In this document: positions 14,094-15,829 of the stretch, in pieces
How the letters are laid out: each line of letters begins with the position of its first letter
Numbering within the stretch: the first letter of the stretch is position 1
DNA from: Telopea speciosissima
Taxonomy: Eukaryota > Streptophyta > Magnoliopsida > Proteales > Proteaceae
Length of the DNA stretch: 64,000 nt
Direction: 5' to 3'
Assembly: GCF_018873765.1 (NCBI RefSeq)
Contig: NC_057920.1
Location: forward strand, 8,569,307 to 8,633,306
Notes under the pieces: model-generated
Seen by the model: the letters and a program-made list of their open reading frames with translations, nothing else
The model's database searches: none
What the model was told of the DNA's origin: nothing
Made by a program: the position numbers and the translations under genes

Positions 14094-14352
14094 GGGTAAA
14101 GAATAAATGCTAAAAAATCCTCGTACCACCCCTACTTTACCCCCCTAAGCTTCTGATAAATCCACGTACCACCCCTACTTTACCCCCCTAATGCCATTTA
14201 AGTCTACATCAGGTATTAATGCTAAAAAATTACCAAATTACCCTTTCTTCTATCTGTTCTAAATTTTGAAAAGACCTAATTGCCCTGATCTATTTGCTAA
14301 ATTTTGAAAAGACCAAAATGCCCTCATCTTCCCCAAATCATCATGTTCCCCG

Positions 14353-14520
14353 TTGGTAAACGATTTCCACAACAATGGTCTTCCCTCCAATCTCTCCGGT
14401 GGCCGGAACCCTAGCTTGGACTACGGGTTCAAGGGTGCCGAGATCGCCATGGCTTCTTACTGCTCAGAGCTTCAATTCCTGTCCAACCCAGTAACCAACC
14501 ATGTCCAGAGCGCAGAGCAG
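14353..14520 (+). pseudogene. PAL: Captured phenylalanine ammonia-lyase fragment 1
   Basis: Encodes [20 protein letters not shown], then [20 protein letters not shown] and [15 protein letters not shown], which is near-identical to the central part of plant phenylalanine ammonia-lyase, including NPS and [11 protein letters not shown]. Similarity stops abruptly at SAEQ, where PAL normally continues HNQDVNSLGL. The frame is intact over this 55-codon piece. It has no start of its own from PAL and lies inside Pack-MULE arms, so it is a captured gene piece and not a functional enzyme. Confidence 0.9.
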
Positions 14521-14564
14521 CAGATCAAAGATGAGTTCTCTCCTGTACCTGTAGCCAGATTCTC

Positions 14565-14735
14565 ATGAAATTTCAGCCGAGGAATCCTACTCCAAATCCC
14601 CTTCACACCTTCTCCGAATCCATGATGGAAGAGAACCTGGAACAGGCCAAATCCATCATCACCAAGTGGGATCCTAACTCCTCCACCTTCGCCAAAGTCA
14701 CTTATCTCTTCCACGGAGCCGATTCGAAGATCTAG
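14565..14735 (+). pseudogene. Captured EXO70 exocyst subunit N-terminal fragment
   Basis: An open frame of 56 codons reads [20 protein letters not shown], then MEENLEQAKSIITKWDPNSS and TFAKVTYLFHGADSKI. The pattern 'HTFS-x-S-x-MEEN-(x)-A-x-IITKWD-x(4)-FAKVT-LF' is the N-terminal signature of plant EXO70 exocyst subunits (the G/H-like group by feel). In EXO70 this is followed by REAKEFL; here it ends in a stop. The piece is sandwiched between two PAL fragments, so it was acquired separately from them. Confidence 0.72.
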
Positions 14736-15030
14736 AATATAGAGAAGAATGATACAATTAATGGGAATTAAAAATTCTAGATGTTAAGTTCGCGAGTGCT
14801 TCTCTAGCTGGTTTGTGCTTTGGAAGTTGGGGAAACAGGGTTAGATCCCCTTCTATATTTGCTTTGCTGTTCCCCACCAAGGAAATCAATAGAAAGATCC
14901 CGAATGTCAGAAGATGTAAAATAGCCTATGCAAAGTTTGCAAAAGCTTACAAAATTAAAATGTTCCCTTGTTCAATGTGTTGAATGCATGATTTATGCCA
15001 CAATCTGTTGAAGCACTCCAGACGGTGAGA

Positions 15031-15035
15031 CAGAG

Positions 15036-15085
<50 letters not shown>

Positions 15086-15094
15086 TGTGTGTGT
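15031..15094. repeat. (GA)n(GT)n microsatellite
   Basis: An uninterrupted GA run of more than 20 units followed by a short GT run, between the captured EXO70 and second PAL pieces inside the Pack-MULE. Confidence 0.9.
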
Positions 15095-15146
15095 AAGATG
15101 GGAGAGGGTAAATTGAAAAAAAGAAAAGAAGAAGAAAGGTTCTGTG

Positions 15147-15505
15147 AAGCTCATGTCCTACACATTCTTGGTTGCGTTATGCCAAGCCATAGATCTGAGG
15201 CACTTGGAGGAGAACTTGAGGCATACAGTGAAGAACACGGTGAGTCAAGCAGCGAAGAGGGTTTTAACCATGGGACTAAACGGAGACCTTCACCCTTCAA
15301 GGTTCTGTGAGAAGGATCTACTCAAGGTGGTAGATCGGGAATATGTGTTCGCTTACATCGACGATCCTTGCAGTGCCACTTACCCCTTAATGCAGAAGCT
15401 GAGACAGGTACTAGTGGAGCAAGCACTAAGCACGGCGAGAATGAGGAATTGAAGACGATTCTGCCAAAAGAAGTGGAAGCGGATAGAAGCACGGTGGAGA
15501 GCGGT
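15147..15505 (+). pseudogene. PAL: Captured phenylalanine ammonia-lyase fragment 2
   Basis: Encodes [40 protein letters not shown], then [20 protein letters not shown] and [20 protein letters not shown]. This is the PAL segment that normally follows fragment 1 after about 22 residues. Near 15430 the reading frame shifts: [20 protein letters not shown] continues in another frame, matching the next PAL segment (ELK-x-LLPKEVEAAR). So the PAL donor was captured in order, with about 65 bp replaced by the roughly 630-bp EXO70 and microsatellite segment. Not functional. Confidence 0.9.
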
Positions 15506-15829
15506 GGTGGTGGTGGTGATAGTAGTATTAAGTATCTACATTGTAAAAGAAGATGAGGGTATTTTGGGTTTTTTCAAAATTTAGCAAATGGGTTGAGGCA
15601 ATTAGGTCTTTTTCAAATTTAGAAAAGATAAAAAAAAAAAAGGTAATTTAATTATTTTATAGCATTTAACACTTGATGTGGACTTAAATGACATTAAGGG
15701 ACAAAACGGAAATGGTACGTGGATTTATCGGAAACTTAAGCGGTACAAAGAATATTAGATGCATTAAAGGGTACGTGTACTTGACCCAAAAAAAGAAAAA
15801 CAACAAATGAGGGTTGCTAACTCAGTTAC

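What the first reader, a model, noticed from the sequence alone, without database searches (positions are those of the whole stretch)
14094..15787. Pack-MULE that captured two unrelated host genes, PAL and EXO70
One non-autonomous element with arms of about 245 bp carries, in one orientation, PAL, then an EXO70 N-terminal piece, then the following part of PAL. The PAL pieces are in native order and would be contiguous but for about 22 residues, so the EXO70 and microsatellite block replaced or interrupted an already captured PAL segment. That gives an order of events. The EXO70 frame has its own ATG and stop, and the PAL pieces are still highly conserved, so a chimeric or regulatory (antisense, small-RNA) transcript against the lignin and phenylpropanoid entry enzyme is conceivable.
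Basis: partly seen in the sequence, partly recalled or inferred. Interest (0 to 1): 0.82.

Follow-up and report, generated by a model that had tools for sequence, protein, structure and literature searches.

The report
Chimeric Pack-MULE carrying PAL and EXO70
This is a small "jumping gene" of a plant (probably the waratah) that has stitched together scraps of several unrelated plant genes, including the enzyme that starts lignin making, and carried the patchwork to several places; the kind is known, but the copies let one read how such patchworks are built.

Summary
Window 14094-15787 is a non-autonomous Mutator-like element with about 240-bp inverted arms, carrying PAL, EXO70 and PAL pieces in one orientation. 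The home genome (823 Mb, fitting Telopea speciosissima) yielded 7 copies of the cargo, two of them a local duplication. Donors lie elsewhere: one PAL gene (C51, 95-96% for both pieces) and an EXO70 cluster (C1, 91%). So it is a capture. The arms belong to a family with 1,075 terminus hits and 9-bp target duplications; other members carry PUB, AOX and PPR-like scraps.

Corrections: about 70 bp of a dispersed repeat precedes EXO70 and supplies its ATG. The microsatellite lies in EXO70's own 3'UTR, joined after a 1.5-kb skip. In the window's sublineage, part of EXO70 was later replaced by 286 bp from C3, which supplies the stop. PAL-first order is possible but not shown; two-ended gap filling on one donor explains the sandwich in one event, and a PUB element is built similarly. 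The PAL2 frame is interrupted in 6 of 7 copies and changes fit neutrality overall, so a chimeric protein is unlikely; regulatory RNA is untested. A well-resolved member of a known kind.

The parts
14085..14093 (.). presumed left target-site duplication AAAAAAAAA (partner AAAAAAAGA, 8 of 9; low complexity)
   Evidence: sequence, read by eye; the script mis-set this copy's left end and there gave 5 of 9
14094..14331 (+). left terminal inverted repeat (MULE arm), begins GGGTAAAG; about 17 bp lost near its tip relative to sister copies
14352..14533 (+). PAL piece 1, from the C51 PAL gene, 96.2% identical
14529..14600 (+). piece of a dispersed repeat (best match outside the copies C1:26944551-26944622, 89%); supplies the ATG at 14565-14567
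14597..14729 (+). EXO70 N-terminal piece, 91% identical to C1:12688417-12688550
14722..15007 (+). 286-bp filler from C3:7205969-7206258 (95%); replaces part of EXO70 in 3 of 7 copies; holds the stop TAG (14733-14735) of the EXO70 frame
15010..15143 (+). last codons, stop (15026-15028) and 3'UTR of EXO70, including the GA microsatellite 15027-15083
15145..15504 (+). PAL piece 2, from the same C51 PAL gene; 95.3% of ungapped sites; 49 bp lost (1 + 48), where the six other copies share a 27-bp deletion
15549..15787 (-). right terminal inverted repeat (MULE arm), ends ...GACCC; 15505-15548 looks like the inner end of this arm
15788..15796 (.). presumed right target-site duplication AAAAAAAGA
   Evidence: sequence

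Best explanation
A non-autonomous Mutator-like element (Pack-MULE) whose inside was filled with copies of host DNA. Shown: inverted arms shared with a large family; family-level 9-bp target duplications; one PAL donor for both outer pieces; an EXO70 gene of which a near-start piece and the end were taken with a 1.5-kb skip; a repeat scrap; the cargo at 7 loci; and one later replacement (C3 filler) whose before and after states both survive. Inferred: filling happened by gap repair. Broken ends inside an element copied host templates, jumped, sometimes at short matches, and were rejoined. For PAL, both ends used the same gene from opposite sides, with jumps to the repeat and EXO70 in between. 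The result was then moved by a transposase supplied in trans. No protein function is likely; it behaves as decaying cargo.
For: Copies, donors and pieces: 21 of 21 candidates scored; 19 of 19 scored. TSDs: 9 of 16 two-ended elements perfect at 9 bp (one of them an A-run), 3 at 8/9, 3 at 7/9; the window by eye 8/9. Termini: 539 forward and 536 reverse hits, control 0. Polarity of the C3 event: 4 copies keep donor-like EXO70 there; the 3 with C3 form one clade (support 0.999 and 0.981). Junctions: 5-bp shared words at 2 of 6 ancestral junctions (AGATG, CAATC; chance 3e-4 to 7e-4). A second element of the family, in 3 copies, is arm|PUB inverted|C2 locus|PUB|arm; in 2 of the 3 (L068, L069) about 65 bp of PUB are present twice in opposite orientations (the third, L025, lacks that stretch of the forward piece), which simple insertion into a captured PUB would not give.
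Against: The other four junctions share only 0-3 bp by my reading of the printed alignments, and donors have drifted since. A third dissected element (L026) is arm|C5 locus|C8 locus|arm, not a sandwich (40 of 714 candidates scored). The window's own TSD lies in an A-run and is 8/9 only; C4a, C4b and C2 reach only 7/9. No autonomous partner with these arms was found: MULE transposases exist in the genome (150 scored of 827 candidates) but were not tied to these arms. The PAL2 piece alone shows slightly more third-position and synonymous changes than expected (one-sided P 0.036 and 0.050; PAL1 goes the other way, P 0.97).
Confidence: 0.77

Rival explanations
1. Stepwise nesting: PAL alone was captured first, then a break inside PAL was patched with the repeat, EXO70 and its 3'UTR, losing 54 bp of PAL.
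For: PAL touches both arms and is collinear; a later patch of the same type (C3 filler in EXO70) did happen.
Against: No PAL-only element found. The 19 lyase hits are 10 hits at five gene-like loci (two of them with stops), 6 of these 7 copies, two weak hits and one diverged fragment (C8:7208744); but that profile does not see PAL piece 2 and one search scored 40 of 1,537 candidates, so absence is not proven. The PUB element shows that a sandwich can form with inverted re-copying, which nesting does not predict.
Confidence: 0.35
2. A functional chimera: a transcript of the element acts as antisense or small RNA on PAL or EXO70, or encodes a short protein.
For: 235 of the window element's 1,674 21-mers match the C51 PAL exon exactly, longest run 85 nt; C4a keeps a 145-aa frame including PAL2, C4c a 210-aa EXO70-PAL frame; PAL2 piece alone P about 0.04 for constraint.
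Against: PAL2 frame interrupted in 6 of 7 copies (TAG in C8, C2, C1; indels in C8, C4c, window, C4b); both pieces together fit neutrality (P 0.18 and 0.23); 47 of 70 polarised changes are C>T/G>A, a pattern often seen in methylated DNA (recalled).
Confidence: 0.08
3. A decayed PAL gene or retrocopy that happens to lie between inverted repeats.
For: PAL pieces in native order.
Against: The same internal breakpoints recur at six separate sites plus a local duplicate, between the same arms, with a PAL donor gene elsewhere; EXO70 3'UTR and repeat DNA are included.
Confidence: 0.01

Closest known systems
Pack-MULEs of rice (Jiang 2004: not seen, recalled and as cited in passages of PMC13317346, and PMC8903248)
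   Same: Mutator-like arms, no transposase, host gene fragments, several loci in one element, multiple copies
   Different: Seen here in a probable Proteaceae genome; includes a gene's end plus 3'UTR after an internal skip, and a later replacement placed on the copy tree. These are details, not a different kind.
Pack-TIRs of animals and the gap-filling / FoSTeST models (PMC8277862, passages seen)
   Same: Captured filler between TIRs, short shared words at breakpoints (median 2 bp there)
   Different: Here several loci in one element, the outer donor present on both sides, multicopy, and a plant MULE
Pack-TYPE elements, tandem-insertion and re-mobilisation model (PMC8903248, passages seen)
   Same: Non-autonomous TIR elements with coding DNA, sometimes from more than one locus
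   Different: As I understand that model, DNA lying between neighbouring insertions is taken; 54-bp and 1.5-kb skips and dispersed donors fit it poorly (inference)

Membership tests
Mutator-like element (MULE) | Long terminal inverted repeats | tested here: met
   about 240 bp, 80% in the window; 77-93% over 186-319 columns in the 15 others examined
Mutator-like element (MULE) | 9-bp target-site duplication (8-11 bp, recalled) | tested here: met
   family level: 9 of 16 perfect at 9 bp (one an A-run), 3 at 8/9, 3 at 7/9; the window 8/9 by eye in an A-run (script 5/9 with a misplaced end), so weak there
Pack-MULE | Carries fragments of host genes with donors elsewhere in the genome | tested here: met
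Pack-MULE | No transposase of its own | tested here: met
   the inside is accounted for by PAL, repeat, EXO70, C3 and arm ends; 4 ORFs scanned against Pfam, only Lyase_aromatic found
Pack-MULE | Moved as a unit (same cargo at several sites) | tested here: met
   7 copies; C4c with perfect 9-bp TSD
Pack-MULE | Autonomous MULE with matching arms in the genome | tested here: inconclusive
   PF10551 matches, 150 scored of 827 candidates, not linked to these arms
CACTA / Pack-CACTA | CACTA termini and 3-bp TSD (recalled) | tested here: not met
   termini GGGTTAAATACG; 9-bp TSD
Helitron | No terminal inverted repeats and no target duplication (recalled) | tested here: not met
   arms and TSDs present

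The most novel reading that the evidence does not exclude
This MULE family builds its cargo by two-ended ectopic gap repair: both broken ends of an element often use the same host gene, and unrelated loci are copied in where the two tracts fail to meet. With over a thousand termini in one genome and surviving before/after copies, it would be a readable record of plant double-strand-break repair and template switching.
Probability: 0.35. Interest if true: 0.58.

Novelty: new member of a known kind. Interest (0 to 1): 0.42.

Why it matters
Chimeric Pack-MULEs are known, but how they gain cargo is still debated (PMC8277862 and PMC8903248, passages, favour different models). Here one genome offers donors, seven copies with shared breakpoints, a later replacement with before and after states, and a second element with an inverted re-copy. 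That makes gap filling testable against the tandem-insertion model. It also shows a gene-shuffling MULE family in a probable early-branching eudicot (Proteaceae).

Tried and rejected
Pfam and PDB searches for the EXO70 piece found no EXO70; the donor was found through DNA. The idea that the dispersed piece is a protein gene was dropped: its loci show stops in all three forward frames (reverse frames were not checked), it recurs as a repeat, and no Rfam family matches L054 or L058. Codon-position counts first looked like constraint in PAL2 (P 0.012); after matching base and context the two pieces together fit neutrality, PAL2 alone staying borderline. The extra 1.8 kb in C4a/C4b is not cargo: TG...CA ends, a 5-bp duplication CTCAT and no long internal repeat fit a solo LTR. 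Linking an autonomous MULE to these arms was tried only through lists of transposase hits and termini and led nowhere. The idea that multi-locus elements always have the same donor at both arms failed in 1 of 3. Literature: no paper found on PAL or EXO70 in a Pack-MULE (one paper, listing only; two papers, passages, neither about such a capture) nor on MULEs in Proteaceae (one paper each, listings only, on lotus and arthropods); most subscription journals are not held, so absence is weak.

Full report
Where it is. The window lies in an assembly of 822,943,500 bases in 1,287 contigs; contigs C1-C11 are 57-88 Mb long. A published table gives Telopea speciosissima 823 Mb in 11 scaffolds (PMC13080361, passage). 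The species is therefore an inference, not read from a record.

The element. Window 14094-15787 has inverted arms of about 240 bp (80% over about 190 bp). The termini (about GGGTTAAATACGCGTACCCC in better copies) give 539 forward and 536 reverse hits genome-wide, one mismatch allowed, with no control hits. Of 16 two-ended elements examined, 9 have a perfect 9-bp target duplication (one of them an A-run), 3 have 8/9 and 3 have 7/9; for the window the script misplaced the worn left end (5/9), and by eye the flanks are AAAAAAAAA / AAAAAAAGA, 8/9. This is a Mutator-like family; 14 of the 16 are 1.3-1.9 kb long, the two others (C4a, C4b) being swollen by an insert.

Cargo and donors. PAL piece 1 (14352-14533) and piece 2 (15145-15504) both come from the PAL gene on contig C51 (96.2% and 95.3% of ungapped sites; two other PAL genes give 81-88%). 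Between them 54 bp of PAL are missing in 6 of 7 copies; in the decayed seventh, C4b, the end of piece 1 cannot be placed. Next to PAL1 is a 72-bp scrap of a dispersed repeat (14529-14600). Then comes an EXO70 N-terminal piece (91% to C1:12688417-12688550; donor confirmed as Exo70_N plus Exo70_C). In four copies EXO70 goes on for another 70-85 bp and then skips about 1.5 kb to its last codons, stop and 3'UTR.

History. Seven copies of the cargo were found: window C5, C4:57.70, C4:57.73, C4:51.01, C8:11.29, C2:53.22 and C1:81.62 Mb (40 of 1,537 candidates scored, 21 of 21). C4:57.70 and C4:57.73 share flanks and are a local duplication; both also hold a 1.8-kb insertion that looks like a solo LTR. 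In the window and these two, part of EXO70 is replaced by 286 bp from C3:7205969-7206258. The four other copies keep donor-like EXO70 sequence there, so the replacement is derived; the three form one clade (FastTree support 0.999 left, 0.981 right). This is an acquisition inside an existing element with both states still visible.

Mechanism. At the six ancestral junctions two have a 5-bp shared word (AGATG at PAL|repeat, CAATC at EXO70 N|EXO70 C); the others have 0-3 bp by my reading. Two or more such words in six are expected with probability 3e-4 to 7e-4, with the caveat that donors have drifted. The later C3|EXO70 junction is ambiguous. Gap filling with template switching, as described for animal Pack-TIRs (PMC8277862, passages), fits. 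A second element of the same family (L025, with sisters L068 and L069) is arm | U-box/ARM gene inverted | C2:49.638 Mb locus (about 350 bp; 101 bp left in L025) | the same gene forward | arm; in L068 and L069 about 65 bp of the gene are present twice in opposite directions, in L025 that stretch of the forward piece is missing. A third (L026) has a C5 locus towards one arm and a C8 locus, lying under the PPR-like frame, towards the other (the C8 locus itself was not fetched). So the same donor lies at both arms in 2 of 3 elements dissected.

Other cargo. Of nine further two-ended elements, three carry recognisable gene scraps: ARM_PUB in L025 (E 1.2e-41), PPR-like in L026 (1.1e-10 to a designer PPR protein), and alternative oxidase exon 1 in L024 (77-84% amino-acid identity to the four best frames on C11, one of them, L066, with an AOX domain downstream, 7.5e-77). 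One ORF from each of the other six was scanned and matched no Pfam family at E 0.01.

Function. In the PAL pieces 13 differences are fixed between six copies (C4b left out) and the C51 gene, 11 at third codon positions, as expected for a gene lineage under constraint. Among the six copies, 74 derived changes split 23/18/33 by codon position (third positions 33 against 29.0 expected, P 0.18; synonymous 29 against 25.7, P 0.23), so neutral as a whole; PAL2 alone is borderline (P 0.036 and 0.050) and PAL1 leans the other way (P 0.97). 47 of 70 polarised changes are C>T or G>A. The PAL2 frame has a TAG in C8, C2 and C1 and frame-shifting indels in C8, C4c, the window and C4b; it is whole only in C4a. 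In C4c the 7-bp deletion lies near the start of the piece, and a 210-aa EXO70-PAL frame is open there. The window's EXO70 frame of 56 codons takes its ATG from the repeat scrap and its stop from the C3 filler. A protein function is unlikely. The window shares 235 of its 1,674 21-mers with C51 PAL, so small-RNA effects are possible but untested.

Verdict. The kind is known; the value lies in the clarity of the record.

Noticed in passing
L010 (C4:57722500-57730500), copy C4b: This copy differs from its sister C4a by very many scattered indels (terminal branch 0.18 against 0 on the left, 0.12 against 0.004 on the right); it may be strongly decayed or a poorly polished stretch of the assembly.
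   Followed up: partly
L025, L068, L069 (C7:52551, C11:4391, C2:2453 kb): Three copies of a Pack-MULE with pieces of a U-box/ARM gene in opposite orientations around a C2 locus; 65 bp of the gene are duplicated inverted in two of the three.
   Followed up: partly
L024 (C4:54888669-54890376): Element with the same arms carrying what is probably exon 1 of an alternative oxidase gene.
   Followed up: partly
window 16165-16900: About 380 bp right of the element begins sequence conserved in pieces with C4:32457205 and C4:14048998; the element may lie just upstream of a gene of unknown function.
   Followed up: partly
window 7405-8004: Copia-type reverse transcriptase fragment (RVT_2, E 1.8e-46).
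   Followed up: no
window 39001-39073 and around to 40044: tRNA gene (Rfam) next to compact ORFs that look, from memory only, like plastid DNA inserted in the nucleus.
   Followed up: no
window 34644-35051 and 46710-47430: Two-copy tandem duplications, unit 203 bp at 99% and 357 bp at 87%.
   Followed up: no
L015 (C51 PAL gene): The donor PAL reads VVDGEY where the window copy and the plant PAL shown read VVDREY; C51 is a 168-kb contig and may hold an alternative allele.
   Followed up: no
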